In this document: positions 65 through 59,156 of the stretch, in pieces
How the letters are laid out: every line of letters begins with the position of its first letter
Position numbering within the stretch: the stretch's first letter is position 1
Assembly: GCA_949285535.1 (NCBI GenBank)
Contig: CASDZP010000004.1
Span: 1 to 64,000, forward strand
DNA from: an uncultured Alistipes sp.
GTDB lineage: Bacteria; Bacteroidota; Bacteroidia; Bacteroidales; Rikenellaceae
Direction of reading: 5' to 3'
Length of the DNA: 64,000 nt
Made by a program: the position numbers and the translations under genes
Notes under the pieces: generated by a model
Database searches by the model: none
The model's input: only the letters and a program-made list of their open reading frames with translations
Told to the model about the DNA's origin: nothing

Positions 65-90
65 TCGACAGGTTGGCAAGCGTACCCCGT
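65..90 (-). repeat. 26-bp motif, copy 1 (element A, distal end)
   Basis: On the minus strand this reads ACGGGGTACGC, two variable bases, then CCAACCTGTCGA after a short gap. Six further copies or near copies occur in the window, all beside the dispersed intergenic element. This copy lies about 57 bp beyond the core of element A, on the side away from the gene. Confidence 0.8.
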
Positions 91-146
91 CACATTCTTT
101 TTCATCTTCTTCATTTTCATTTTTCGAAGGCAATACACTAAGAGAC

Positions 147-250
147 GCTGACTTCTAAAAAGACAATGAACCAAATGAATATGACATGGTCAAAGTAGCT
201 GTGCCCCCGAGGGACAAAGTAACTCCCGCCGAAGGTACCCTCAGAAAACT
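147..250 (-). repeat. Dispersed intergenic element, copy A
   Basis: Copy A of a family with five members here. In family orientation it starts with a CT-GAGGG-like end facing the gene at 411-4370, continues through GTTACTTTGTCCCTCG and the GGGGGCACAG block, and ends with the conserved TTTGACCATGTCA, TTCATTTGG and GAAGTCAGC blocks. It lacks about 18 bases that make the second arm of the internal hairpin in copies C, D and E. It looks like the most decayed copy. No intact protein is encoded. Confidence 0.75.
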
Positions 251-287
251 TCGCAAGAAATAAGTAAAAACGTAATAACAAATATAT

Positions 288-466
288 TTCCTTGGCAGAA
301 AGTACACGATTGCGGTTTCCGTATCGTTGTAGATGAGAAATAGTCGATATCTAAATAAAAAAGACGGCTCAATATAATATTGAGCCGTCTTTTTTTATTT
401 GGATAATCGACTATTCCTCATCTACAACGATACGGAAACCGCAATCGTGTACTTTCTGCCAAGGAA
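288..466. repeat. Long inverted repeat: 3' end of the 411-4370 gene duplicated around its terminator
   Basis: Bases 288-375 are an inverted, nearly exact copy of bases 377-466. The copy includes the last 56 or so coding bases of the gene ending at 411, its stop codon and its trailer, with the terminator hairpin at the centre. Differences are few: one G/A change next to the stop, small changes in the trailer and one base in the A-run. The copied segment is bordered on the outside by element A. Confidence 0.9.
361..391 (-). terminator. Bidirectional rho-independent terminator
   Basis: Stem AAGACGGCTCAATAT with its complement around the centre at about 376, flanked by T-runs on both strands. 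It ends the transcript of the gene at 411-4370 and sits at the centre of the larger inverted repeat. Confidence 0.85.
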
Positions 467-3400
467 GGAAGTGACGACGGGTGTAAGAGGTAGCGTCTTT
501 GGGTCTATCCCACCAAGAACCGCCACGAACTACTTTATAAACCTGTTCGCCTTCGGGAAGTTTCTTGACATCATACGGTTTGTAGTCAGAGCTTGTCCAC
601 TCTTCAACGTTACCAATCATGTCATAGAGACCCCACGGGTTAGCCTCATACATACCACCTTTGGGCTCGAGGAGCATATTACCATCATCCACACCCTCTA
701 CTTTGGGCAGGAAGTTGTAATATTTATACCAGAAGCTTGTTTTGGGCATAGGCTGCGGGTCGATACCTGAAACGGCCATCTTCTCGAGCTGTACGTCTGC
801 AAGGTTGGCATATTTAGAGAAGTCTGTATTGAGGTTACCATACCATGTGGGCTGGTCAGAACCTGCGCGGCAAGCCCATTCCCACTGTTCCTCTGTCGGG
901 AGAGTGACTTTGAAACCTGTCTTTTCAGAGAGCAGACGACAATATTCGACTGCATCTTCGTAAGAGACTCTTGTCACTGCCTGATCGGGAAGGTTAGCGG
1001 GATAACCGGGAGTGGTATGGTCTTTCCACTGCTGAGCGATATATCTGCTGTCATGTTCGGGAACAAGAGCGCAGAACTGTTCGTTTGTTATCTCAAACGC
1101 ACCAATCCAGAACGGTTTGTCTATCTTGGCTTTAACCTCCTTAGCATCGAGACCGTAACGGTTGTCACCCATAACGAATGAACCTGCGGGCACTTTGCGC
1201 AAAACAATCTTCACGCCGGGAGCGACCTCAATCTCTTTGCGTGTTTCACCAAGAGCATCCTGTTTCTCAACAGCCTGTTCTGCCGTGAAGGGCCATCCTT
1301 TGACTTTAACGTCTTTGAGAGTTTCTTTTGTCTCTACGGGAAGTACGGGTTCAACCGGACCTTTGGCTTTAAGATAAGCGGCATAGTCGTCTATCTCTTT
1401 CTGCCAATCGACAACCATGTTGTTGTACTTCTTGGCAAGTTCCATACGACGTTTCACCTGGTCCTGACCTCTAAAGTCGTTCACATTATTGAATGTGCTG
1501 TAATAAGGACAGTTGAAGTCAATCCAGTTATAAAGAGTACGCCACTCTTTGTCTGTGAGTTCCACTCCGTGGTGTCCTTTTTTGAGCATCTGAATCATCG
1601 GAGATGTAGAAGCGTGATATTCGTACGGTTTCATAACGTAAATATCGGCTTCGGGGCCCTGACGACGGAAGTAGGGATGGAACTGGAGATAGCTTTCAGA
1701 GAATCCAAGACGGTCATCGTAACGTCCTGAAGTAAAGTTTATAGAGCTGTTCTCGTTGTGGCAAGCGACGCATGCACGGTCGAGAATGGGCTGTATTTCA
1801 AGTTCGAAAGTGAAAGCTCGTGTACCACCCTCGGGAGCCTCTATTTCGAGAGGTTTCATCTTCTGGGCAATGGTAGATTTAGGCACGGGCATCTGGTTCT
1901 GGTCTTCGTGACATCCGACGCAAGATACCGTTTCACCGGGCATACCTGTAAGCCAGCTTCTCATCCACTGTATCGCACGTCCCTCTGAGTCGAGAGGCTG
2001 AAGCGAGATAGGAGTGTTTGCGGGAATCTTGAAGATAACGGAACCGTCTTCCTGAACGGGTACTTCACCGAGCAGTCGTTTGATATCCCAACCGCTCTGG
2101 ATACCCTGAGCCGCATGGTTAGAGGGAGAGTTCACATAAGCGTATTCGTAAGCGAACACACGCAGTTTCTTAACCTCGCCGCGGGGAACACCGGGAAGAC
2201 CTTCACCTTCATATATATCCTGAATAAAGACTGTCGCATCTTTCTTTGACAAATCAACCTTGTCGGGGATAACGGGAGGAATGGGGCGTTTTTCACGAAG
2301 AATCGGGTTGTTCAAACCTTCGCCTTCAAATTCGGCAATCAGAGTTACGTTGTCGAATACGTCCACCAGATAGATACCCCAAAGAGACTCTTCTTCGAGT
2401 TTTGCAGAAACGAGGAAATATTTGTCAGAGATGGGATAAGGTTTCATGAACTGAGGCCATACACCGTTGACAAGTTCGTCTTTGATTTCGGGAATTACCT
2501 CTCTGTTACGGAACGGAATCTCCTGAACGAGACCTTTCAGCTCTTTACGACCTTTTGCGGGGTCGAAAATCATGAGACGGCCTGTACGGGCGATACCGTG
2601 GTGACCTGAAATGATTGAGATGAACGCAGACGCAGAACCGGGAAGAGGCTGTACGTCAAAGGTACTGTTGGGGAAGTAACCGCCACTACCGTAAAGCGCT
2701 TTGGCTTCGGTTCCGTCAGGGTTCATGTGCATGACGAAACGAGAGAAGTAGTGTGTAAGGTCGGTATATTCCCAACGTACATACATCAACTTACCATTGT
2801 TCATCACGACGGGATTCCAGTTGGCATCCTGGTCGAATGTGATACGTCTGAGGTTGCGGTCTTCGGGATTGTAGAGCACCATGTTACCTACGGCATCCTC
2901 ACCATCGACACAAGGTACACCCTGATAACCGATGTTTGACACTGCCATAATCTTACCGTTGGGAAGATATGCCGCATCGAAGAACTCGAGGTCCTCGTCA
3001 TCGACGGTCACGAGCTCTTTCGCGTTCTTACCATCGACACCCACTTCGAATACGCCCCAGAGACCTTTCTCGTTGATTGCAGAGAACATCATTCTGTCGG
3101 CGTTCCAGTGCAGGTGAAGGTCGGGAACAGAGCTTCCGCCCTCGGGTTTGTAGATAGAACGTGTTGACATGTCGCCTGCCACATCCATGAGTTCGGCAAT
3201 CTCTGCGTCGAAGCCCATACGGGGAGCAGACATCTGGTTAGACCAGTTGTTGGCCTGAGTACCGAGCTGGGGACCCATTGCAGTACGTGCGTTGTCGCCG
3301 AGACGGTAACGTCCCACCAATATGTTACCTGATTTGAGGTAGGGGTTGGCGAGCATTATCTCTCTCTGCAATGAAAGCGCTTTTTCAGCTTTGGCAAGCT

Positions 3401-4370
3401 CCTCTTCTGAACCGTTATAGATATTTATGTTAGAGGCAAGCAAAGACAACAGCTCGTTAACCTTGGGTTCAACAGCAGCAGCGTCGAAACCTTCGATTGT
3501 CTTCATGTCGGCAAAGGCATCTTTTATGCTTGCCGCATTGAGCCATTTGAACTTGCTCTGAACAAACAACACCTTCTTGGCACTGTTGAATATATCAACA
3601 TATTCTTTAGCCGCTTCGGGTTTCGATGCGTCAACTTTTGCCAAAAGAGCATTGAAATAACTCGGGTTGATGAGTTTGCCTACTATGTGTTTGGCTGCGC
3701 TCTTCTCTATATAGGCATTGTCGAGTTCGTTTGCCCATGCGGGAGTGTAAACCAGACCCAGCTTCACGAAATCATTGACCTCCTGATGGTTTATTGCCAA
3801 CAGAGAGTTAAGCACATCGCGAGAAGCCACGTTCTGGAAATCTACGCGAACGGCACCCTCTCTTGACGAGAAGTCGTCAAGACCGAGTTCCAATGTGAGC
3901 GTTTTGTATTTCTTGTCAAGTTTCAGTACGAGTTCGCCGTTGGGGTTCATAACCATACCGTTGTCATAGCGTGTACCGCTAATGGTTATGGGACGGCGAT
4001 ATCTGTTCTGATTGTAACTTATGCCACCGGGGAACATGAAATAATCTTTCTGTGCACGGTCCAAAGTGACTGTCGTTCCGTCTTCGGCCACGAGTTTGCC
4101 GTTGGCCATCACCAACTGGTCATTACCGTTTCCTTTTCCGGTCACGCTGACAAGAACAGCCAGCTTGTCGAGACCTGAAACATCGACGGTAACGCTCTTG
4201 GCGCGTTCTCCTCTGCGCACGATCTCACTCTTGGGCATTCCTGCCTTGGCGAGAGAGGCTGCAACCTCCTTTTTTGCATTCACAACGGCATCGCCCCACT
4301 CCTGCGCAAAGAGAGGAGACCAACACGTCATGGCAGCAAAAAGCATGCACGATAAAATCGTTCTCTTCAT
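411..4370 (-). CDS. Secreted multidomain protein: HzsA-like propeller with two CxxCH motifs and C-terminal FGE-sulfatase domain
   Basis: 1319 residues with an N-terminal signal peptide. Residues about 50-190 form a beta-rich region resembling NPCBM carbohydrate-binding modules. A helical stretch follows, then a propeller-like region (about 410-740) resembling the middle domain of hydrazine synthase alpha subunit homologues. Two c-type haem motifs follow, CVGCH (817-821) and CVACH (867-871). From about 1045 to the end is a formylglycine-generating-enzyme/SUMF1 fold, with GSFVMG, LPTEEQWEWACRAG, GNVEEWTSS and VVRGGSWWDRP. The family suggests a periplasmic or surface redox protein; substrate and reaction are unknown. 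It is the last gene of a minus-strand group with the propeller gene 45 bp upstream. FGE-fold domains often have roles other than sulfatase activation, so that activity should not be assumed. The 3' end is duplicated in inverted form beyond the terminator. Confidence 0.8.
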   Translation of the reverse strand: MKRTILSCMLFAAMTCWSPLFAQEWGDAVVNAKKEVAASLAKAGMPKSEIVRRGERAKSVTVDVSGLDKLAVLVSVTGKGNGNDQLVMANGKLVAEDGTTVTLDRAQKDYFMFPGGISYNQNRYRRPITISGTRYDNGMVMNPNGELVLKLDKKYKTLTLELGLDDFSSREGAVRVDFQNVASRDVLNSLLAINHQEVNDFVKLGLVYTPAWANELDNAYIEKSAAKHIVGKLINPSYFNALLAKVDASKPEAAKEYVDIFNSAKKVLFVQSKFKWLNAASIKDAFADMKTIEGFDAAAVEPKVNELLSLLASNINIYNGSEEELAKAEKALSLQREIMLANPYLKSGNILVGRYRLGDNARTAMGPQLGTQANNWSNQMSAPRMGFDAEIAELMDVAGDMSTRSIYKPEGGSSVPDLHLHWNADRMMFSAINEKGLWGVFEVGVDGKNAKELVTVDDEDLEFFDAAYLPNGKIMAVSNIGYQGVPCVDGEDAVGNMVLYNPEDRNLRRITFDQDANWNPVVMNNGKLMYVRWEYTDLTHYFSRFVMHMNPDGTEAKALYGSGGYFPNSTFDVQPLPGSASAFISIISGHHGIARTGRLMIFDPAKGRKELKGLVQEIPFRNREVIPEIKDELVNGVWPQFMKPYPISDKYFLVSAKLEEESLWGIYLVDVFDNVTLIAEFEGEGLNNPILREKRPIPPVIPDKVDLSKKDATVFIQDIYEGEGLPGVPRGEVKKLRVFAYEYAYVNSPSNHAAQGIQSGWDIKRLLGEVPVQEDGSVIFKIPANTPISLQPLDSEGRAIQWMRSWLTGMPGETVSCVGCHEDQNQMPVPKSTIAQKMKPLEIEAPEGGTRAFTFELEIQPILDRACVACHNENSSINFTSGRYDDRLGFSESYLQFHPYFRRQGPEADIYVMKPYEYHASTSPMIQMLKKGHHGVELTDKEWRTLYNWIDFNCPYYSTFNNVNDFRGQDQVKRRMELAKKYNNMVVDWQKEIDDYAAYLKAKGPVEPVLPVETKETLKDVKVKGWPFTAEQAVEKQDALGETRKEIEVAPGVKIVLRKVPAGSFVMGDNRYGLDAKEVKAKIDKPFWIGAFEITNEQFCALVPEHDSRYIAQQWKDHTTPGYPANLPDQAVTRVSYEDAVEYCRLLSEKTGFKVTLPTEEQWEWACRAGSDQPTWYGNLNTDFSKYANLADVQLEKMAVSGIDPQPMPKTSFWYKYYNFLPKVEGVDDGNMLLEPKGGMYEANPWGLYDMIGNVEEWTSSDYKPYDVKKLPEGEQVYKVVRGGSWWDRPKDATSYTRRHFLPWQKVHDCGFRIVVDEE

Positions 4371-8374: not shown

Positions 8375-9076
8375 TTACATTTTAGCTTTGGGGTTGGTGA
8401 AGCGCAAACCGTCATTGTCATGGTAGTTTGCGTATTCATGAACGATAGCGCCTTCGTCACCTGCATAGAGGAAGTGGAAAGTACCCTCTTCTTTGAGACG
8501 GAGGATTTCGCCACGGTTCTGACGCACGCAGTTTTTAGAAATAGTTGTTGCTTTCTGGCTTTCGGGAACAGCAGGAGCATCAGGAGTGGGTTCGCCTACT
8601 TCGCTGAAGTTATAAGCCCAACCTTCACTAACTTTCCAAGACTCATGTTTGGCGGGATATTTGGTAGCCACATGTTTGTGTTCGGGAATCATCTGACCGG
8701 GAAGCAGATAGATGTCATGTGAGAAGTATCCGTGTTCTGCGTCGTTAATCCAGAAGATACCGCCCATGCCGCAGTTTTCGAAGTCTCCCAATCCGAAGTC
8801 GGTAACCCAAATATTCTCTTTGAGGAACTTAGTCTCAGGAGTGTCATAGAATCTAAGCATCTCCATGATAGCTTCCATTGCTATTGAGTCATTAAACTTA
8901 CCGTCGGTATAGAAATCGGCGTTGGTGTACTTTTTAGAAAACTTTGCTTTCATTTCTTTAGAAGTTGAAGTTGTTGTTTGATTTGCAGCGGCATTGTCAG
9001 CCGTGTTATTACCTCCGCAAGAGGTCAACGTAGCGGCAATGAGAAGTGCCGCAAAAGCTGTCATTGTTTTTCTCAT
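8375..9076 (-). CDS. Cupin lipoprotein, possible sugar isomerase
   Basis: 233 residues. The signal peptide ends in a lipobox (TLTSC), so the protein is probably anchored in the periplasm or on the surface. After a Thr/Ser/Ala-rich linker comes a cupin-type core with a metal-site segment GQMIPEHKHVATKYPAKHE and later KNCVRQNRGEILRL. This arrangement resembles the D-lyxose/D-mannose isomerase branch of cupins, although an extracytoplasmic lipidated version is unusual. Spacing is 6 bp to the VOC gene and 4 bp from the Rid gene, so it is firmly in the operon. Isomerase activity is an inference from fold and context. Confidence 0.65.
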   Translation of the reverse strand: MRKTMTAFAALLIAATLTSCGGNNTADNAAANQTTTSTSKEMKAKFSKKYTNADFYTDGKFNDSIAMEAIMEMLRFYDTPETKFLKENIWVTDFGLGDFENCGMGGIFWINDAEHGYFSHDIYLLPGQMIPEHKHVATKYPAKHESWKVSEGWAYNFSEVGEPTPDAPAVPESQKATTISKNCVRQNRGEILRLKEEGTFHFLYAGDEGAIVHEYANYHDNDGLRFTNPKAKM

Positions 9077-9080
9077 AACT

Positions 9081-10238
9081 CTATTGTTTTTTATTGTTGC
9101 ATTTCATTTCATAAAGCGCCACGCCTTCTATCTCTATCAGAAGCTCGTCACGGCACACATCCGTGTTAAGGAACACAAGAGCGGTCTCGGGGTGATTTTC
9201 TCTCATATATCGGCTCACCCACTCCATGTCGTTCTCTCTCTTCACATACACACGCAACAGCGCATATTTCGGAACTTCAAGCACGGACACCGAACCGCAG
9301 TCGGCAATATTACGCAGAGACATCAGATAATCGATATTCTCCATCGTAACTTTTGTCTGCTCCTCTATGTTGCCAAGTCCGACACTCTCCTCACCTCTTA
9401 TTGAGGCTGTCCCGGAGATGTAACCTAAAGCTCCGCCGTCGCTGACCACGACTTTGCCTCTCTCGAACTTGGGCGTCGTTCTTGACTTCAGCACCTCATC
9501 CTCAGCTCCTATCAGCACATTTTGCGAATAGTCGTGTGCGGGAACCTGAAGCGCGTTATCGAGCGGTGTCACCTCGGCAGCTCCTTTAACGGCATTGAAA
9601 TCGACGACCACACCGCATATACCCGCGCCTATTCCTGTCGCAGCGGGATAACCGTCGGGCCACTCTGCTTTGCCGTAGAATTTTGTCCTTGCGTCGTTGA
9701 ACACCTGATAATTCTGAAATTCACCGACAAATCCGGTTATCTCTTCAATATAATTCCACTGTCGCACGATATTGCCGGGTGTCATTCCCTCGGCATGCAG
9801 CAGCTTCTCCGCCTTGGCGAAAAGCAACGCACACTGTTCAGACAACGCGGTATCTATATCGCCTCTCAAACCTCCGACAAACAGATGTTTGCAATCTGCC
9901 GTCTCTGCGACAATATAATCCGTACCGTCAACGGTCTCATATCGCAACGAGGCATCTCCGTTAATATAATGTGCCTCTATCGCCACTTTTGCGCCGAACG
10001 GCTCTTGAGAGACATAACTGAAAACGGGTTTTCTCTCTCCGAAGGCGTTATCGAGAGCCTCCTCTATAATTTCCAGCTCGGCAAGATACTCTTTCTTGTC
10101 TTTCGGCTTTCCGAAAAAGACACATCTGACGGGAACTCCGCCTTTCTGCGACAATTCCGTCACAGCCTCATTACACGCCTTTTTGAAGGTATCGCCATCA
10201 GCGGCGACTGTTGCGTATTTATATCCGATTGTCATCAT
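9081..10238 (-). CDS. Two-domain Rid/YjgF-family protein
   Basis: 385 residues without a signal peptide. The C-terminal half has the Rid/YjgF pattern: GYISGTASIRGEESVGLGN, then EQTKVTMENIDYLM, then a terminal LIEIEGVALYE. The N-terminal half is also Rid-like but diverged (HLFVGGLRGDID...EQCALLFAKAEKLL), and the middle has YPAATGIGAG, as seen in chorismatase-type relatives. RidA proteins hydrolyse reactive enamines/imines; chorismatase relatives hydrolyse enol ethers. In this operon it may remove a reactive by-product or open an enol intermediate. No precise function can be given. Confidence 0.65.
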   Translation of the reverse strand: MMTIGYKYATVAADGDTFKKACNEAVTELSQKGGVPVRCVFFGKPKDKKEYLAELEIIEEALDNAFGERKPVFSYVSQEPFGAKVAIEAHYINGDASLRYETVDGTDYIVAETADCKHLFVGGLRGDIDTALSEQCALLFAKAEKLLHAEGMTPGNIVRQWNYIEEITGFVGEFQNYQVFNDARTKFYGKAEWPDGYPAATGIGAGICGVVVDFNAVKGAAEVTPLDNALQVPAHDYSQNVLIGAEDEVLKSRTTPKFERGKVVVSDGGALGYISGTASIRGEESVGLGNIEEQTKVTMENIDYLMSLRNIADCGSVSVLEVPKYALLRVYVKRENDMEWVSRYMRENHPETALVFLNTDVCRDELLIEIEGVALYEMKCNNKKQ

Positions 10239-20441: not shown

Positions 20442-22541
20442 ATGAAAAAACTGATACTATCGACACTCGTCTTTTCATCGGCGGCTGTTGTCTCGGCGCA
20501 GGAGCTGACCTCCCCCGACAACAACCTGAAACTGACATTCATGCTCGACTCTAACGGCGTTCCCGCCTATACACTCACCTATAAGGACAAAACGGTCGTG
20601 AAGCCCGGACGTATGGGGTTCATCATTAAAGACGGCATATCACTTGCCGACGGTTTCGAGATGACAGAATGCGACTACGACAGCGTGGATACCGTGTGGA
20701 ACACCGTATGGGGACAGAGCTCCACGGTGAGAGACAACCACAAGGAGATGTTCGTATCGCTGACGCGCAAAGACAACGGACTCAAAATGGGCATACGCTT
20801 CAGACTCTTCAATGACGGTCTGGGATTCAGGTATGAGTTTCCCGTACAGCCGTCGCTCCGCCACTTCACGATAGAGAACGAGGTGACGCAGTTTGTGCTC
20901 ACGGGCGACCACAAGGCGTTCTGGATACCCGCCGACTATGACACCAACGAGTTTCAGACAACCACATCGAAGCTGTCGGAGGTATTCGAACTGTCGAAAG
21001 GTGTGATAAAGAACCCGCCCGCCACAAACGAGCCGCTGCCCTACCCCGCGGTACAGACGCCTCTCATGCTCAAATCTGACGACGGGCTCTATATAAACAT
21101 CCACGAGGCGGCACTGATAGATTTTCCTGGCATGCACCTTAACCTCGACGACGAGAATTTCGTGCTCAGCTCACACCTTACCCCCGACAGAAACGGCGAC
21201 AGAGGACACATACAGACAGGAAGTGTCTCTCCGTGGAGGACGATAGTGGTGAGCGACGACGCGCGTGACATCCTCGCATCCAACCTTATACTGAACCTCA
21301 ACGAGCCGTCCAAAATTGAGGACACATCATGGATAAAACCGATAAAATATGTCGGCGTATGGTGGGAATACTTCACGGGTCAGGGCTCTACATGGGCATA
21401 CTCTGACGAGAAAGACATTGTGATAGGCGTGACCGACTACAACAAGGTTAAACCCAACGGTCACCATGGTGCCAACACGGAGCATGTGAAAGAGTACATC
21501 GACTTTGCCGCCGAGCATGGTTTCGACGCCGTGCTTGTTGAAGGCTGGAACCAAGGCTGGGAAGACAATCAGGCGTACCTGAAAGAGAAGATATACAGCT
21601 TTACCACTCCCTACCCCGACTTCGACGTCGAGTATCTGAGCGACTACGCGGCGAAGAAAGGCGTTAAGATAATAATGCACCACGAGACGACCTCATCGGT
21701 GATAGACTACGAGCGGCAGCTCCACGACGCCTTCAAGTTCATGAACAAATACGGCTACGAGGCTGTCAAGACGGGTTATGTCGGCAGTATCATTCCCCGA
21801 AGCGAGCATCACGACGGTCAGTGGATGGTTAACCACTATAACTATGTGGCGGAGACAGCCGCCAAATACCATATCATGGTTGACTCTCACGAGGCTGTCC
21901 GCCCCACAGGTCTATACAGAACCTATCCCAACTGGCTGGCGCAGGAGTCTGCACGAGGCACGGAGTACGACAGTTTCAACGGCAACAACCCCGACCACCA
22001 CACCATTCTGCCGTTCACGCGTCTCATGGGCGGTCCCATGGACTACACGCCGGGTATATTCGAGGGTGACCTCTCGGTATATGGTCCCAACAAGGCTAAA
22101 CTCAGCACAACGCTCGCCAAACAGCTCGCTCTCTACATCACGATGTACAGCCCGTTCCAGATGGCGGCTGACCTGAAAGAGAATTACATGAAGTATCCCG
22201 ACGCCTTCCAGTTCATAAAAGACGTTGCTGTCGATTGGGATGCGACCTATGTTCTTGAGGCTGAGCCAGGCGATTACATCACGATGGCGCGTAAAGAGCG
22301 TGGAGCCGACCGTTGGTTTGTCGGAGCGATAACCGACGAGAATGCCCGCACCGCGACTGTCTCTTTCGACTTCCTCCCGAAAGGCAAAACCTACACCGCC
22401 ACCATATACGCCGACGGCAAAAACGCCCACTGGCTTGACAACCCGAAAGAGTATCGCATATACACCAAGAAGGTGACATCCAAAGACAAAATTGAGATAC
22501 CTTTGGCATGTAGCGGTGGTGCGGCAATCAGCATAGAGTAA
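20442..22541 (+). CDS. Glycoside hydrolase family 97 (SusB-type alpha-glucosidase)
   Basis: 699 residues with a signal peptide (cleavage after VVSAQ). All three GH97 domains are present: an N-terminal beta-sandwich (about 20-270), a TIM barrel (about 280-560; YVGVWWEYFTGQGSTW, AAEHGFDAVLVEGWNQGW) and a C-terminal beta domain. The segment MHHETTSS has Glu where inverting SusB-type members carry a catalytic Glu, and VDSHEAVRPTGL supplies a second conserved Glu. This favours the inverting alpha-glucosidase subgroup over the retaining alpha-galactosidases, which use Asp. The action is release of glucose from alpha-glucans in the periplasm. The last part of the gene is duplicated in inverted form beyond its terminator. 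Confidence 0.92.
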   Translation: MKKLILSTLVFSSAAVVSAQELTSPDNNLKLTFMLDSNGVPAYTLTYKDKTVVKPGRMGFIIKDGISLADGFEMTECDYDSVDTVWNTVWGQSSTVRDNHKEMFVSLTRKDNGLKMGIRFRLFNDGLGFRYEFPVQPSLRHFTIENEVTQFVLTGDHKAFWIPADYDTNEFQTTTSKLSEVFELSKGVIKNPPATNEPLPYPAVQTPLMLKSDDGLYINIHEAALIDFPGMHLNLDDENFVLSSHLTPDRNGDRGHIQTGSVSPWRTIVVSDDARDILASNLILNLNEPSKIEDTSWIKPIKYVGVWWEYFTGQGSTWAYSDEKDIVIGVTDYNKVKPNGHHGANTEHVKEYIDFAAEHGFDAVLVEGWNQGWEDNQAYLKEKIYSFTTPYPDFDVEYLSDYAAKKGVKIIMHHETTSSVIDYERQLHDAFKFMNKYGYEAVKTGYVGSIIPRSEHHDGQWMVNHYNYVAETAAKYHIMVDSHEAVRPTGLYRTYPNWLAQESARGTEYDSFNGNNPDHHTILPFTRLMGGPMDYTPGIFEGDLSVYGPNKAKLSTTLAKQLALYITMYSPFQMAADLKENYMKYPDAFQFIKDVAVDWDATYVLEAEPGDYITMARKERGADRWFVGAITDENARTATVSFDFLPKGKTYTATIYADGKNAHWLDNPKEYRIYTKKVTSKDKIEIPLACSGGAAISIE

Positions 22542-22730
22542 CCGTATAACGACATAAAACATAAAATTTCAGGGTGAGGTTTAGGATTCAAACCTCACCT
22601 TGAAATTTTATGCTTTATGTCGTTATACGGTTACTCTATGCTGACTTGTCGTACCACCACATGTCAAAAGTATCTCAATTTTGTCTTTGGACGTCACCTT
22701 CTTGGTGCATATACGATACTCTTTCGGGTT
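22440..22730. repeat. Inverted duplication of the GH97 gene 3' end around its terminator
   Basis: Bases 22587-22730 are an inverted copy of 22440-22580 or so, covering the last 100 bases of the GH97 reading frame, its stop and its trailer. The two arms differ by nine substitutions, all transitions, plus a 3-base and a 1-base indel. The terminator hairpin is at the centre. The outer edge of the copy meets element B. The divergence shows this is not a sequencing or assembly fold-back. Confidence 0.92.
22564..22611 (+). terminator. Terminator of the GH97 gene
   Basis: Stem made of AAATTTCAGGGTGAGGTTT and AAACCTCACCTTGAAATTT around a short loop, AT-rich on both flanks. It lies at the centre of the inverted duplication. 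Confidence 0.75.
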
Positions 22731-22735
22731 ACATG

Positions 22736-22850
22736 CTCCCGGGGGCACAGCCCCTTTTGACCATGTCACATTCATTTGGCTCATTATCTTCCACGAAGTC
22801 AGCATCTCCCCGCACTCGCCTTCCGCTTTTTCGACCCTCACCCATGACAC
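22736..22850 (+). repeat. Dispersed intergenic element, copy B (5'-truncated)
   Basis: Begins at CTCCC, so it lacks the first half with the GTTACTTTGTC hairpin. It keeps GGGGGCACAGCCCC, TTTTGACCATGTCACATTC, TTTGGCTCATTATCTT and GAAGTCAGCATC. The orientation relative to the neighbouring gene end is the same as in the other copies. Confidence 0.8.
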
Positions 22851-22956: not shown

Positions 22957-22982
22957 ACGGGGTACGCATGCCAACCTGTTGA
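22957..22982 (+). repeat. 26-bp motif, copy 2
   Basis: ACGGGGTACGCATGCCAACC followed by TGTTGA. Distal to element B, same orientation as the element. Confidence 0.8.
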
Positions 22983-23043
22983 ATAAGCATTCCAAAAAAG
23001 AAAAAACAAAAGGAGAAAAGAAAGTTGGGTAGGAAAAGAGGAG

Positions 23044-23069
23044 CTGGGGTACGCGTGCCAACCTGTCGA
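23044..23069 (+). repeat. 26-bp motif, copy 3
   Basis: Second motif distal to element B, GGGGTACGCGTGCCAACC followed by TGTCGA, 61 bp after the previous copy and in the same orientation. The spacer is A/G-rich. Confidence 0.8.
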
Positions 23070-29789: not shown

Positions 29790-30569
29790 ATGAGTACCAT
29801 ACTTTTCGGCGACATAGTCTTCGGACCGATAAAAAGCAGACGATTGGGACGCTCACTGGGTGTCAATCTCCTTCCGCTGGAGGCGAAACTGTGCAATTTC
29901 AACTGTATATATTGCGAATGCGGCTGGACGGGAGTCGGCGACAAGAGCAAGATGCGTTACAATCCGCGCGAAGAGGTATCGAAAGCGCTTGAAAAGCGTC
30001 TTTCGGAGATGCGTGCGACGGGTGAGGAACTGGATGTGATAACCTTTGCGGGCAATGGCGAACCGACCATGCACCCTCACTTTGCGGAGATAATAGATGA
30101 TGTCACCGCCTTGAGGAACACCTATTTCCCGTCTGCCAAGATTGCCGTATTGAGCAATGCCACCATGTTGGGACGGGAGAATGTTAGGAAAGCCCTTGAA
30201 AAGGTTGACAAAGCCATATTGAAGATAGACTCCGGAATCCCCGAAACTATCAAGGTTGTTGACGCTCCCCTGTTCGACTACTCTCTTGAAGATGTAATAT
30301 CGAACATGAACGCTTTTAAAGGCGATATAATAATACAGACAATGTTTCTCCGTGGCGAGAAAGACGGTTACAGGATTGACAACACCACTGACACGGAGGT
30401 AGAGGCATGGCTTAATGTTCTCGACCGTATAAAGCCCTCTCTTGTAATGTTATACTCTCTCGACCGTGAGACCCCTTACGACAAGCTCTCCAAAGTAAGC
30501 GGCGACGAACTCGAAGCAATAGCCGCCAAAGCCTCCGCCCGCGGCTACGAATGCGAGTTCACGAAATAG
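29790..30569 (+). CDS. Radical SAM protein (COG0731-like)
   Basis: 259 residues. The Fe4S4-binding motif CNFNCIYC with a further Cys two residues on is at about 35-44, followed by the SAM-site glycine motif TFAGNGEPTMHP (about 89-100). The start is typical (FGDIVFGPIKSRRLGRSLGVNLLP). The family includes TYW1-like and other small radical SAM enzymes; the reaction is unknown. Unlike other junctions, the region beyond this gene has only a symmetric hairpin before element C. Confidence 0.9.
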   Translation: MSTILFGDIVFGPIKSRRLGRSLGVNLLPLEAKLCNFNCIYCECGWTGVGDKSKMRYNPREEVSKALEKRLSEMRATGEELDVITFAGNGEPTMHPHFAEIIDDVTALRNTYFPSAKIAVLSNATMLGRENVRKALEKVDKAILKIDSGIPETIKVVDAPLFDYSLEDVISNMNAFKGDIIIQTMFLRGEKDGYRIDNTTDTEVEAWLNVLDRIKPSLVMLYSLDRETPYDKLSKVSGDELEAIAAKASARGYECEFTK

Positions 30570-30571
30570 CT

Positions 30572-30620
30572 CACATCGGGGTCATAACCCTTTATCGGTT
30601 AGGGTTATGACCCCGATGTG
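30572..30620 (+). terminator. Long hairpin beyond the radical SAM gene, abutting element C
   Basis: A perfect 20-bp stem (30572-30591 with 30601-30620) and a 9-base loop, starting 3 bp after the stop codon. There is no T-run behind it; element C begins at the next base. It is probably the original terminator, with its T-run side replaced by the element. Confidence 0.75.
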
Positions 30621-30790
30621 GCTCTCCGAGGGCGCTCCCGCGGGGGTCTGCCGACGGCGTTACTTTGTCCCTCGACAAAGTAACCAAAACGAGGGGGCAC
30701 AGCCCCTTTTGACCATGTCACATTCATTTGGCTCATTATCTCTTTGGAAGTCAACATCGAACCGTTTATCGCCTCATGTCCGCTCATACC
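30621..30790 (+). repeat. Dispersed intergenic element, copy C
   Basis: A full copy. It opens with CTCCGAGGGCG, has an 11-bp-arm hairpin GTTACTTTGTC / GACAAAGTAAC (30659-30684), a GGGGC-ACA-GCCCC hairpin (30694-30706), then TTTTGACCATGTCACATTC, TTTGGCTCATTATCTC and GAAGTCAACATC. The minus strand happens to be open for 60 codons, but copies A, B and E do not preserve that frame. Confidence 0.85.
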
Positions 30791-30848
30791 CCAGTTACGC
30801 CATAAATAACCGCATCTTTTATAAAAAATTTATAAAAAATAAAGAGAT

Positions 30849-30874
30849 ACGGGGTATGCTTACCAACCTGTCTA
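30849..30874 (+). repeat. 26-bp motif, copy 4
   Basis: ACGGGGTATGCTTACCAACC followed by TGTCTA, about 60 bp beyond element C in the same orientation. Confidence 0.75.
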
Positions 30875-30956
30875 AAAGAATAGGAAAAACAATAATGTTG
30901 TCCATTGACTTTCGTTAATCCAATAAACGGCATTATAATATACAAAAAGAAAAATA

Positions 30957-31030
30957 TTACGGGGTACGCTAACCGACTTTTCGAATGATTTTATAAAATA
31001 ATCCGACAAATTGATTAGCGTACCCCGTAA
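30957..31030. repeat. 26-bp motif, copies 5 and 6, as an inverted pair
   Basis: Copy 5 (30959-30984, plus) and copy 6 (31003-31028, minus) face away from each other around an AT-rich centre. Their outer 16 bp (30957-30972 and 31015-31030) are perfectly complementary. Both are diverged in their second half compared with copies 1-4. Confidence 0.75.
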
Positions 31031-43037: not shown

Positions 43038-43181
43038 ATTTTTTGCAACAAATTTTCATGCAATTTTTATTCACCGCCTCTACACCACCCTCTCGGCGGT
43101 ATTAAGGAGACATATTGAAACATGTTGATAAGATGTCGGTTATTTTGGATTATCGGATGATGTTCGTTATCCTTTTTTTTA

Positions 43182-43189
43182 TATTTTTG
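43182..43189 (+). promoter_or_regulatory. -7 box ahead of the cobalamin riboswitch
   Basis: TATTTTTG, about 20 bp upstream of the aptamer, matches TAnnTTTG. No -33 TTG at the expected spacing. Confidence 0.4.
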
Positions 43190-43204
43190 TAGTGTTGTGG
43201 TTTT

Positions 43205-43380
43205 GACGGAAGGCAATTCGAGCCGTTCCGCGAACGAAAGAGGGAATCACGTGAGAGTCGTGAACAGTACCCGCTGCTGTAAGCCACGCGAACCGAGCTT
43301 CGACATTACGACATGCCACTGTCCTCACGGGGATGGGAAGGCGGAAGCGAGGGTGGCGAGTCAGAATACCTGCCGCAATG
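43205..43380 (+). ncRNA. Cobalamin (AdoCbl-type) riboswitch, without a downstream gene
   Basis: Highly recognisable: AGAGGGAATCACGTGAGAGT, then CCCGCTGCTGTAAGCC (B12 core), GCCACTG, GGGAAGGCGG and the closing TCAGAATACCTGCC. It reads on the plus strand. Such switches normally control TonB-dependent B12 receptors or cobalamin genes. Downstream on the plus strand there is no gene before rpmE, which runs the other way. See the following region for a possible remnant. Confidence 0.92.
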
Positions 43381-43740
43381 TATAAAAATGCTTTCGGGAA
43401 CAGGGGCGCACATCTTCAATTTTATTTCCCCAATCCCTCAGGTGCATAAAACCGACCCTTGAGAGGTCTGTGCCACGAACACGGACGGACGGGGCGACAA
43501 GAGAGTTTCTGCCATACTGTTTTTTACCCTTTTACTCTTGTCTTTTTCGGTTTGTGCACCTTTTTTATTTACACTTTCACAACTTTACAACCTTATATTT
43601 TTACACACATATACGCATACACCCATTAATTTCACACATCCAACATATTCAACATATCCTATATATCTAACTATATCTAACACATATCCTATATATACTC
43701 TTATATACTCTATTATCCTATTTTCTAAAATTACACTTGA
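43381..43740 (+). other. Non-coding stretch after the riboswitch, with a signal-peptide-like remnant
   Basis: From about 43496 one frame reads DKRVSAILFFTLLLLSFSVC, like a bacterial signal peptide, but there is no ATG, GTG or TTG start ahead of it and the rest of the frame is low-complexity Tyr/Pro/Thr. Bases 43560-43740 are AT-rich, with repeated ACATATCCTATATAT-like words. This fits a riboswitch-controlled exported protein whose gene has been lost or replaced. Confidence 0.5.
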
Positions 43741-43751
43741 AACTCCGACAC

Positions 43752-43777
43752 TCGACAAGTTGGCAAACGTACCCCGT
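43752..43777 (-). repeat. 26-bp motif, copy 7 (element D, distal end)
   Basis: On the minus strand ACGGGGTACGTTTGCCAACT followed by TGTCGA. Same orientation as element D, about 108 bp beyond it. Confidence 0.8.
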
Positions 43778-43884
43778 AGCTTTTTTTATTATTGTTTTTA
43801 TTATTGTTTTTACTACCGTTTTTATTAGTGCCGTCAACATTTTATATCAAGAAGGACATTAAACTATGGTGTAATGGGTGAATC

Positions 43885-44050
43885 ATGGGAAAGCGGGAGG
43901 CGACAAACGGTGAGATACCGACTTCCAAAAAGATAATGAACCAAATGCGTATGACATGGTCAAAAGGGGCTGTGCCCCCTCGTTTTGGTTACTTTGTCGA
44001 GGGACAAAGTAACTCCCACGGAAGGCGCCGTCGGAGACCCCTCGGAGAGA
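43885..44050 (-). repeat. Dispersed intergenic element, copy D
   Basis: A full copy in reverse: on the minus strand it opens CTCTCCGAGGGGTCTCC, has GTTACTTTGTC / GACAAAGTAAC, the GGGGC-ACA-GCCCC hairpin, TTTTGACCATGTCA and GAAGTCGGTATC. It lies between rpmE (via an inverted terminator copy) and the orphan riboswitch region. Confidence 0.85.
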
Positions 44051-44051
44051 T

Positions 44052-44107
44052 GCTCTTTTTTGTATGTTATCGGTTTAGGTCAAAACCGATAACATACAAA
44101 AAAGAGC
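44052..44107. repeat. Inverted copy of the rpmE terminator trailer
   Basis: Arms 44052-44076 and 44083-44107 are perfectly complementary (25 bp, 6-base loop). The right arm is the T-run and last bases of the rpmE terminator plus its trailer; the left arm is the inverted copy, bordered at once by element D. Confidence 0.85.
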
Positions 44108-44132
44108 GCGACCCGATGTTCGGGTCGCGCTC
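44104..44132 (-). terminator. Terminator of rpmE
   Basis: Stem GAGCGCGACCCGA / TCGGGTCGCGCTC with a T-run on the minus strand (44103-44098). Confidence 0.92.
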
Positions 44133-44147
44133 TCATGCAGAGTAGGA

Positions 44148-57540: not shown

Positions 57541-58851
57541 ATGGTAATACAGCTTTTGGTCGTCCTTGTGGCGATAATAATAGGGGCACGACTCGGCGGC
57601 ATAGGGTTGGGAGTGTTCGGAGGTGTAGGACTTGCGGTGCTGGTCTTCATCTTTGGACTCACACCCACATCGCCTCCGATAGACGTGATGCTGATGATTG
57701 TGGCGGTCATTGCGGCGGCGGCATGTATGCAGGCGGCGGGCGGTCTCAACCTCATGGTACATTGGGCGGAGAAAATCCTGCGCAACAACCCGCAGAGGAT
57801 AACGATACTCAGTCCGCTTGTGACATACACGTTCACATTCATAGCGGGAACGGGTCACGTGGCATATTCAGTGTTACCCGTGATAGCGGAGGTGGCGTCC
57901 GAGACGGGGATACGTCCCGAACGACCGTTGTCGATAGCGGTGATAGCCTCGCAGCAGGCAATAACGGCGAGCCCCATATCGGCGGCGACCGTGGCGTTAC
58001 TCAGCATGCTCGGCGCGCAGGGCTTTGACATAACCCTCGGCGATATTTTGCTGATATCCATTCCCTGCACCCTGATAGGCGTAATCGTCGGAGCGATATG
58101 CTCTCTCCGTGTAGGTAAGGAGTTGAAAGACGACCCCGAATATCTGCGTCGCCTCAAAGAGGGAGAGATAAAGAAAGAGACGACTACAACAGACGGTATG
58201 AACAACAAGCGCGCCGCGCTCACATCCGTGATATTATTCCTCGCCGCGACAGCAGGCATAATAGTATTCGGTTCGTTTCCCGAACTTCGCCCCTCATTCG
58301 ACGGCAACTCGATGTCCATGTCATACATAATCGAGATACTGATGCTCTCTGCGGCGGCATTAATCCTTATATCGACGCGTACCGACGGCATAAAGGCGGC
58401 GCAAGGCTCTGTCTTCTCCGCAGGCATGCAGGCTGTGGTGGCGATATTCGGTATTGCGTGGATGGGTGACACCTTCATAGGCGGCAACATGGCGGAGATA
58501 AAGAGTTCGATAGAGGAGACCGTTACGGCGATGCCGTGGCTTTTCGGCGTAGCGCTCTTCGTGATGTCCATACTGCTATTCAGTCAGGCGGCAACCATCA
58601 GAGCCTTGCTCCCTCTCGGCATGGCATTAGGCATATCGCCCTACATGTTGATAGCTCTTTTCCCCGCTGTCAACGGCTATTTCTTCATCCCCAACTACCC
58701 CACCGTCGTAGCGGCGATAAACTTCGACAAGACAGGAACAACCCGCATCGGCAAATACATCCTCAACCACTCCTTCATGATGCCCGGCATGGTCGCAACA
58801 GTCACGGCAGTTGTCTTGGGTATCGTAATGGTAAATATCCTTTATCTGTAA
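57541..58851 (+). CDS. Anaerobic C4-dicarboxylate transporter (DcuA/DcuB family)
   Basis: 436 residues with about 10-11 membrane segments. DcuA/B exchange fumarate, malate or aspartate for succinate in anaerobic respiration. Family patterns: ARLGGIGLGVFGGVGLAVLVF, SPLVTYTFTFIAGTGH, RPLSIAVIASQQAITASPIS. No signal peptide. The last 52 coding bases are the left edge of a perfect palindrome with element E beyond. Confidence 0.93.
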   Translation: MVIQLLVVLVAIIIGARLGGIGLGVFGGVGLAVLVFIFGLTPTSPPIDVMLMIVAVIAAAACMQAAGGLNLMVHWAEKILRNNPQRITILSPLVTYTFTFIAGTGHVAYSVLPVIAEVASETGIRPERPLSIAVIASQQAITASPISAATVALLSMLGAQGFDITLGDILLISIPCTLIGVIVGAICSLRVGKELKDDPEYLRRLKEGEIKKETTTTDGMNNKRAALTSVILFLAATAGIIVFGSFPELRPSFDGNSMSMSYIIEILMLSAAALILISTRTDGIKAAQGSVFSAGMQAVVAIFGIAWMGDTFIGGNMAEIKSSIEETVTAMPWLFGVALFVMSILLFSQAATIRALLPLGMALGISPYMLIALFPAVNGYFFIPNYPTVVAAINFDKTGTTRIGKYILNHSFMMPGMVATVTAVVLGIVMVNILYL

Positions 58852-58978
58852 GGGATTAAAAAACGATTTACGGAGTATATGTGTCGGATTATGACACATA
58901 TACTCCGTAAATCGTTTTTTAATCCCTTACAGATAAAGGATATTTACCATTACGATACCCAAGACAACTGCCGTGACT
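58800..58978. repeat. Perfect 86-bp-arm palindrome spanning the dcu gene end and terminator
   Basis: Arms 58800-58885 and 58893-58978 are identical as reverse complements over 86 bp, with a 7-base loop. The left arm holds the last 52 coding bases of the dcu gene, the stop, and half of its terminator; the right arm is the inverted copy. Element E starts at the next base. With no mismatch, the duplication is either very recent or actively kept. Confidence 0.93.
58862..58918 (+). terminator. Terminator of the dcu gene
   Basis: Stem AACGATTTACGGAGTATAT plus GTGTC with its complement, loop GGATTAT, then a T-run. It forms the core of the palindrome. Confidence 0.85.
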
Positions 58979-59156
58979 CTCCGAGGGGTCTCCCGACGAG
59001 CTCTCCGAGGGCGCCTTCCGCGGGAGTTACTTTGTCACTCGACAAAGTAACCAAAACGAGGGGGCACAGCCCCTTCTGACCATGTCACACCCCGTTGGCT
59101 CATTATCTTTCAGGAAGTCGGCATCCAAACGGCGCCTCGCCTCTCGCATGGGCTTA
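58979..59156 (+). repeat. Dispersed intergenic element, copy E
   Basis: A full copy. CTCCGAGGGGTCTCC, CTCCGAGGGCGCC, CGGGAGTTACTTTGTC with the matching arm GACAAAGTAAC, GGGGC-ACA-GCCCC, then TGACCATGTCACAC, TTGGCTCATTATCTTT and GAAGTCGGCATC. It runs up to the stop codon of the exchanger gene, so no 26-bp motif is present on the far side. CTCCGAGGG occurs twice. Confidence 0.85.

What the first reader, a model, noticed from the sequence alone, without database searches (positions are those of the whole stretch)
30572..31030. Dispersed terminator-associated element with constant architecture, five copies in 64 kb
Five intergenic copies (A 147-250, B 22736-22850, C 30621-30790, D 43885-44050, E 58979-59156) share conserved blocks: CTCCGAGGG, an 11-bp-arm hairpin GTTACTTTGTC, a GGGGC-ACA-GCCCC hairpin, TTTTGACCATGTCA and GAAGTC. 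Each sits directly beyond a gene's terminator and always points the same way from it. Four of five carry a 26-bp motif further out. No transposase or conserved frame is inside. Hairpins at the ends and a preference for terminators recall elements moved as single strands by Y1 transposases (REP/RAYT, IS200/IS605). Several genes in this window could be insulated by it.
Basis: partly seen in the sequence, partly recalled or inferred. Interest (0 to 1): 0.9.

Follow-up and report, generated by a model that had tools for sequence, protein, structure and literature searches.

The report
Hairpin repeats beside back-copied gene ends
An uncultured gut-type bacterium (family Rikenellaceae) carries about 134 copies of a small hairpin-rich DNA repeat, and nearly every copy examined sits next to a private, backwards copy of the neighbouring DNA, usually the end of a gene; this footprint suggests the repeat spreads by a fold-back copying route that I know of in no described bacterial mobile element.

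Summary
The repeat is real and larger than reported: 134 copies in the 2.05-Mb genome, 66 on one strand and 68 on the other, with none for the reversed control pattern. Sequence-level copies occur only in this genus of Rikenellaceae; G003 has 11 and G002 one diverged copy.

It is mostly something else: a long, near-perfect inverted repeat whose outer arm is the host gene's own 3' end, often deep inside the coding sequence (59 of 73 gene-end copies; median 78 nt, maximum 132). It is followed directly by the repeat. All 67 long hairpins in 562 kb adjoin a copy. Orthologous genes in sister species lack both repeat and inverted arm at 12 of 17 sites.

The repeat is an array of 3-bp mini-hairpins (1-8 units, 296 of 342 self-complementary against 99 expected), then two hairpins supported by covariation, then a tail.

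Best reading: a non-autonomous element whose insertion is coupled to fold-back copying of the target's 3' end, then a template switch into the element. The footprint is shown; the enzyme and order of events are inferred. Y1/RAYT is not supported: no Y1 gene was found, and target inversion is not expected.

The parts
288..466 (-). Copy A: long palindrome; outer arm inside the CDS of the 411-4370 (-) gene (56 nt of CDS), inner arm its inverted copy
   Evidence: (179 bp, near-perfect)
133..287 (-). Copy A: decayed element (hairpin 1 has lost its distal arm, hairpin 2 altered)
65..90 (-). Copy A: distal 26-bp motif
   Evidence: exact match
22440..22730 (+). Copy B: 291-bp palindrome; outer arm covers the last 102 nt of the GH97 glycosidase gene (20442-22541)
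22731..22817 (+). Copy B: element, 5'-short (lacks hairpin 1), hairpin 2 and tail present
22957..23066 (+). Copy B: two 26-bp motifs in A-rich sequence
30572..30620 (+). Copy C: 49-bp palindrome starting 3 nt after the stop of a radical-SAM gene (29790-30569)
30621..30658 (+). Copy C: array of three mini-hairpin modules (CTC-TCC-GAG, CGC-TCCC-GCG, GTC-TGCC-GAC)
30659..30684 (+). Copy C: hairpin 1, GTTACTTTGTC-CCTC-GACAAAGTAAC
30694..30706 (+). Copy C: hairpin 2, GGGGC-ACA-GCCCC
30707..30781 (+). Copy C: tail TTTTGACCATGTCA..GAAGTCAACATC..CGCCTC
30849..30875 (+). Copy C: 26-bp motif (further copies, one inverted, to about 31030)
44052..44107 (-). Copy D: 56-bp palindrome centred about 20 nt past the rpmE terminator (44102-44134)
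43885..44051 (-). Copy D: element (modules, hairpins 1 and 2, long tail)
43752..43778 (-). Copy D: 26-bp motif
58800..58978 (+). Copy E: 179-bp palindrome, 77-bp perfect stem, 7-nt loop; outer arm covers the last 52 nt of a DcuA/DcuB-type transporter gene (57541-58851)
58979..59143 (+). Copy E: element (modules, hairpins 1 and 2, short tail), ending 14 nt before the convergent Na/Ca exchanger gene

Best explanation
A non-autonomous mobile DNA repeat whose insertion is coupled to fold-back copying of its target. Proposed order: (1) a 3' end forms, most often in an intergene next to a gene's end; (2) that strand folds back on a short local inverted repeat with a 3-12 nt loop and is extended along itself for tens of nucleotides up to about 150, making an inverted copy of the gene end; (3) the growing end switches onto the element, entering at the mini-hairpin array, and copies hairpin 1, hairpin 2 and the tail; (4) the end is rejoined to the downstream flank. 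SHOWN by sequence: the outcome (gene end - short loop - inverted gene end - element - flank), its near-universality, absence at most orthologous sites, hairpin covariation, and strong conservation of the element block. INFERRED: the order of steps, the strand, whether the template is RNA or single-stranded DNA, and the enzyme. A polymerase with snap-back and microhomology-switching activity is needed; the genome's one reverse transcriptase is only a weak candidate.
For: All 67 long ungapped hairpins (score 25 or more) in 562 kb lie beside a copy, the 67th belonging to decayed copy A. Palindrome score just upstream of copies: quartiles 100/136/182, against 10/13/16 downstream and 10/11/16 at random sites. 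90 of 104 inner arms end within 20 nt of the first module; 59 of 73 gene-end copies run 10 nt or more into CDS (median 78, max 132). Centres have 3-12 nt loops, mode 7. Arms are local: the sequence differs at every site and matches the adjoining gene. In relatives, 12 of 17 orthologous gene ends have no element, and their palindrome scores are 9-30 (examples). The same layout occurs in the independently assembled sister MAG G003 (8 of 10 copies), but not in G001/G002, whose related repeat lacks hairpin 1. The coding arm is as close or closer to the ortholog than the inverted arm in nearly every pair, and the inverted arm carries more gaps (107 against 25), so it is the copy. Some arms overlap the entered module by several nt. 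Snap-back DNA synthesis with microhomology use by a bacterial group II-like RT is documented (PMC12337344).
Against: No machinery identified: no Y1 transposase; the RT is found only in G000 and G002, not in G003, which has the fold-back. Arm age does not correlate with element divergence (Spearman -0.11), so arms might form or be renewed after insertion. No strain-level empty site could be found. Several arms are separated from the element by 10-80 nt of unexplained filler. The junction microhomology was seen by eye and not tested statistically.
Confidence: 0.55

Rival explanations
1. Replication-roadblock version: the element inserts by an ordinary route, and its hairpin array then stalls replication, so the nascent strand folds back at the nearest hairpin and copies itself (quasipalindrome-type template switching), growing an inverted arm that always abuts the element.
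For: Needs no dedicated enzyme; arm age and element divergence are uncorrelated; near-perfect arms next to decayed copy A; template switching at inverted repeats is a documented process (listing).
Against: Essentially every copy away from a contig end has an arm, whereas a later stochastic process should leave many without one. Known quasipalindrome changes improve existing short repeats and, to my knowledge, do not routinely add 80-150 nt.
Confidence: 0.2
2. Target-primed reverse transcription by the genome's own RT: a nick near a terminator-like hairpin primes self-copying and then reverse transcription of an element RNA.
For: One RT gene is present with group II/DGR-like sequence; two length classes with a constant module-side start resemble RNA-template effects; group IIC introns insert next to terminator hairpins (PMC3240598); G2L4 RT performs snap-back synthesis (PMC12337344).
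Against: No RT found in G003. The RT lies beside an array of variable-domain repeats typical of a DGR. Arm mismatches show no excess at template A, as a mutagenic DGR RT would give (A 3.9%, C 6.3%, G 6.1%, T 4.3%).
Confidence: 0.12
3. One reading: single-strand transposition by a Y1/HUH enzyme (REP-RAYT or IS200/IS605-like).
For: Small covarying hairpins and high copy number; a weak layout similarity to putative oriT regions of Bacteroidota plasmids.
Against: No PF01797 match and no Mob_Pre match, whose control did not ring; one relaxase in G000 but none in G003. HUH insertion is not expected to leave an inverted copy of the target. Copies are not arranged as inverted pairs around a transposase gene.
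Confidence: 0.06
4. Selected function: the long hairpin plus element is a host-maintained 3'-end device (terminator or mRNA stabiliser), and the inverted arm is kept for function.
For: Gene-end and convergent-intergene bias. The 62-nt element block stays at about 0.8% mismatches while neighbouring arms diverge up to 8%.
Against: Arms decay like neutral sequence, with mostly transitions and excess gaps in the inverted arm. There is no functional need for 50-130 nt of antisense CDS, and orthologous genes do without it.
Confidence: 0.07

Closest known systems
REP/BIME repeats with RAYT (Y1) transposases
   Same: High-copy, intergenic, species-restricted, non-coding, hairpin-built, compensatory changes keep stems (PMC2817692)
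   Different: No Y1 gene; 110-300 nt element with module array; every insertion has an inverted copy of the target, which REPs are not known to have
IS200/IS605 and derived small repeats
   Same: Subterminal hairpins, terminator neighbourhoods
   Different: No TnpA; target inversion not expected from its known mechanism
Group IIC introns
   Same: Insert next to terminator hairpins (PMC3240598)
   Different: No ribozyme or Rfam match, no intron-encoded RT, target sequence not inverted
G2L4-type RT snap-back synthesis and MMEJ
   Same: The biochemical step invoked here: 3' end folds on a short microhomology and is extended (PMC12337344)
   Different: A repair enzyme in Pseudomonas; no associated dispersed repeat in the passages read
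Quasipalindrome template-switch mutation
   Same: Hairpin-templated copying makes inverted repeats
   Different: To my knowledge small corrections at existing repeats, not element-coupled 50-150 nt copies at over 100 sites
Double-hairpin elements of mitochondrial genomes
   Same: Small mobile hairpin repeats of unknown mobilisation mechanism (my knowledge; papers listed, not read)
   Different: Organellar; no target inversion that I know of
Sister repeat family of G001/G002
   Same: Shared mini-hairpin modules and a GGGGTC-GACCCC hairpin in the same order
   Different: No hairpin 1, no inverted gene copy (0 of the sampled copies)

Membership tests
REP/RAYT | Cognate Y1 (RAYT) transposase in the genome | tested here: not met
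   PF01797: 0 matches in G000, 88% complete; the control rings in 5 of 14 genomes
REP/RAYT | Short palindrome with a conserved foot, copies as inverted pairs | tested here: not met
   Asymmetric 110-300 nt element in single oriented copies
IS200/IS605 derivative | Y1 TnpA and insertion 3' of a fixed short target | tested here: not met
   No TnpA; junctions vary and follow the gene's own inverted copy
MITE (DDE transposon derivative) | Terminal inverted repeats and target-site duplication | tested here: not met
   No terminal inverted repeats in the element; the inverted repeat is host sequence on one side only. Target-site duplication not tested
Group II intron / RNA of a known family | Match to a covariance model | tested here: not met
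   Rfam: nothing at gathering over the window except a cobalamin riboswitch; element alone: no credible match
DGR-driven retrohoming | Adenine-specific mutagenesis of the copied strand | tested here: not met
   Mismatch rate by template base shows no A excess
DGR-driven retrohoming | RT present wherever the fold-back occurs | tested here: inconclusive
   RT in G000 and G002, not found in G003, which is 82% complete
Plasmid oriT (MOBV) derivative | Sequence homology to oriT and a MOBV relaxase | tested here: inconclusive
   36 nt at 92% to pFB1, E 3e-3, similar layout; Mob_Pre: no match but its control did not ring
Intrinsic terminator | GC stem followed by a T-run at the palindrome centre | tested here: not met
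   36 of 92 centres have T5 or longer within 32 nt; D has a separate true terminator

The most novel reading that the evidence does not exclude
A new class of bacterial mobile element that inserts by fold-back priming: the target's own 3' end is copied back on itself and then joined by template switch to a hairpin-array element, leaving an inverted target copy at each insertion.
Probability: 0.45. Interest if true: 0.92.

Novelty: categorically new. Interest (0 to 1): 0.8.

Why it matters
Known bacterial insertion routes leave direct target duplications, clean joints or homing events. An element that leaves a one-sided inverted copy of its target at over a hundred sites would point to a different priming chemistry. 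Its arms (one coding and constrained, one drifting) record events that can be read in sequence data. It also makes a testable case for how species-specific intergenic repeats arise without a visible transposase, and shows long palindromes persisting in a genome that has an sbcD gene.

Tried and rejected
Y1 transposase: none. DGR RT as maker of the arms: RT found, but no A-biased mismatches and not detected in G003. Loss of palindrome-cutting SbcD as permissive cause: sbcD present in G000-G003. Replication-strand bias of copies: none seen, small sample. Arm age against element age: no correlation, inconclusive. Element in phages, plasmids or viral contigs: no direct match except the 36-nt plasmid lead. 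Named genomes: only the G003 MAG. Rfam with relaxed threshold: one sub-threshold chance-level hit. Relaxases: one MOBP-type in G000, none in the other genus members. Assembly artefact: rejected, because arms carry substitutions and indels and an independent MAG shows the same layout. Literature: eight searches found no description of this footprint; the library is open-access only.

Full report
WHAT WAS CLAIMED AND WHAT IS THERE. The five copies and their conserved blocks are real. The window is 64 kb of a 77-kb contig of a 2.05-Mb metagenome-assembled genome, 88% complete. The only named genome hit by the hairpin-1 pattern is a sister species, an uncultured Rikenellaceae bacterium. The core pattern GGGGCACAGCCCCTTnTGACCATGTCA with up to 3 mismatches occurs 134 times, 66 on one strand and 68 on the other; the reversed pattern occurs 0 times.

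ANATOMY OF THE ELEMENT. 5' to 3': (i) an array of 1-8 mini-hairpin modules, each a 3-nt arm, a short loop (TCC, TCCC, TGCC, CTTCC) and the reverse complement of the arm. Of 342 candidate modules 296 are self-complementary, against a mean of 99 and a maximum of 120 in 500 shuffles. Modules such as GTC-TCC-GAC, CGC-TCC-GCG and TGC-TCC-GCA lie almost only in first position. (ii) Hairpin 1, GTTACTTTGTC-nCTC-GACAAAGTAAC; all four Watson-Crick pairs occur at its second position across species. (iii) Hairpin 2, GGGGC-ACA-GCCCC, with two compensated changes. The two hairpins give 98% paired cells and a covariation score of 0.124, against 0.034 shuffled and at most 0.044 when slid. (iv) TTTTGACCATGTCA and a more variable tail ending near GCCT(C). 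(v) In a minority of copies, a longer tail and one or more 26-bp motifs: 38 of 40 motif occurrences lie downstream of an element, 34 on the same strand, and 30 of 105 copies have one. No frame or transposase was noticed inside.

Directly upstream of the module array lies a long palindrome. Its outer arm is the host sequence already there, usually the 3' end of the gene; its inner arm is an inverted copy of it; the loop is 3-12 nt, most often 7. In the window: A 288-466, B 22440-22730, C 30572-30620, D 44052-44107, E 58800-58978; A, B and E reach 56, 102 and 52 nt into coding sequence. In 562 kb sampled around copies, all 67 ungapped hairpins scoring 25 or more lie beside an element. With gaps allowed, palindrome score quartiles are 100/136/182 upstream of copies, 10/13/16 downstream and 10/11/16 at random sites. 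90 of 104 inner arms end within 20 nt of the first module. Of 73 copies whose 5' neighbour gene points at them, 59 palindromes run 10 nt or more into its CDS, median 78, maximum 132. The few copies without a full palindrome are mostly cut by contig ends. The centre is not generally a terminator: 36 of 92 have a run of five T, and copy D's palindrome lies beyond a separate terminator.

WHICH ARM IS THE COPY. The coding arm is as close or closer to the orthologous gene than the inverted arm in nearly every tested locus. The inverted arm carries more gaps (107 against 25), mismatches are mostly transitions, and median arm identity is 95%. So the coding arm is original and the inverted arm is a recent, drifting copy. 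The adjoining 62-nt element block stays at about 0.8% mismatches even where arms have diverged by 8%, so it is under constraint or homogenised. Caution: copies were found with this block, which favours conserved ones, though the independent hairpin scan found only one long palindrome (A) beside a decayed block.

PLACEMENT. The gene on the 5' side points toward the element in 74 of 97 cases; 45 intergenes are convergent, 38 tandem, 5 divergent, against 81 convergent, 261 tandem and 57 divergent among all sampled neighbours (genes called by simple longest ORF). Gene 3' ends are favoured, by targeting or by selection, but not required: C6 and C9 copies lie beside gene 5' ends.

RELATIVES. Hairpin 1 to hairpin 2 occurs in G000 (118 hits), G003 (11) and G002 (1 diverged) and in no other of 268 family genomes. 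In G003, 8 of 10 copies have the palindrome, and all 5 long hairpins in 248 kb lie beside module arrays. G001 (249 kb) and G002 (68 kb) have none. 19 other family genomes (335 kb excluding a masked contig) have two short unrelated ones. G001 and G002 carry a related repeat with other modules and no hairpin 1, often soon after a stop codon and without fold-back. At 17 orthologous gene ends, 12 have no element in the relative; palindrome scores there are 9-30 (sequences). The rpsN (S14) gene end has an element with a different inverted arm in G000 and G003, so some ends may be repeat targets.

HOW IT PROBABLY WORKS. The footprint says that a strand ending in the intergene folded back on a short local repeat, was extended along itself into gene sequence, and then continued as the element, entering at the module array. 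A few junctions overlap the entered module by several nucleotides, as expected of template switching; this was not tested statistically. The reverse direction of synthesis (element primes on the gene strand, then turns at a local repeat) gives the same product and cannot be told apart from sequence. A different order, with the element inserted first and the arm grown later at a replication block, is the main rival; the lack of correlation between arm age and element divergence keeps it alive, while the near-absence of arm-less copies speaks against it.

MACHINERY. No Y1 transposase. One RT of 456 aa with group II/DGR-like similarity is shared at 70% identity with G002 but not found in G001 or G003. 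It lies beside a tandem array of about ten variable-domain-like repeats, and the arms show no adenine mutagenesis. Precedent for the required chemistry exists in the G2L4 RT, which does snap-back synthesis (PMC12337344). DGR and group IIC elements both use hairpins at their targets (PMC3240598). sbcD is present, so the palindromes are not explained by its loss. One relaxase occurs in G000 only.

NOVELTY. Defining features of REP/RAYT, IS200/IS605, MITE, group II intron and DGR homing were tested and not met (table). I know of no described bacterial element that leaves a one-sided inverted copy of its target at essentially every insertion, and eight searches of an open-access library found none. 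I rate the footprint categorically new; the mechanism is inferred and could prove to be a known repair pathway acting at a new kind of repeat.

Noticed in passing
L092 10194-13872 (G000:C12:26000-45000): About ten tandem 315-440 bp repeats beside the RT gene (8818-10188, -), encoding ends that look like DGR variable domains (one weak Fib_succ_major match); possibly a DGR with an array of variable cassettes.
   Followed up: partly
L151-L157 (Bacteroidota plasmids, several upstream of mob genes): Putative oriT regions read hairpin - CTCTCCGAGGGC - GGGGC..GCCCC - TTGACC, the same order as the element's start; homology or convergence is unclear.
   Followed up: partly
L101, L103, L104, L106, L107 (G001/G002): Sister repeat family with GGnACTGCC modules, often soon after stop codons, without fold-back; some copies carry a further imperfect palindrome (GTCTGAGTCATAAATGTG..) in the tail.
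   Followed up: partly
window 30849-31030: Three 26-bp motifs after copy C, the last in inverted orientation; function unknown.
   Followed up: partly
window 43181-43391: Cobalamin riboswitch on the + strand (Rfam RF00174, 91.9 bits).
   Followed up: no
L117 near 1500-1700 (G002): Diverged hairpin 1/hairpin 2 copy followed, not preceded, by a palindrome (AGCAAAGCAACCCCCTC..GAGGGGGTTGCTTTGCT).
   Followed up: no
G000 contigs C1, C5, C7, C8, C13, C14, C18, C25, C26, C29, C35, C37: Many contigs end within a few hundred bases of an element copy, as expected of assembly breaks at repeats and palindromes.
   Followed up: no
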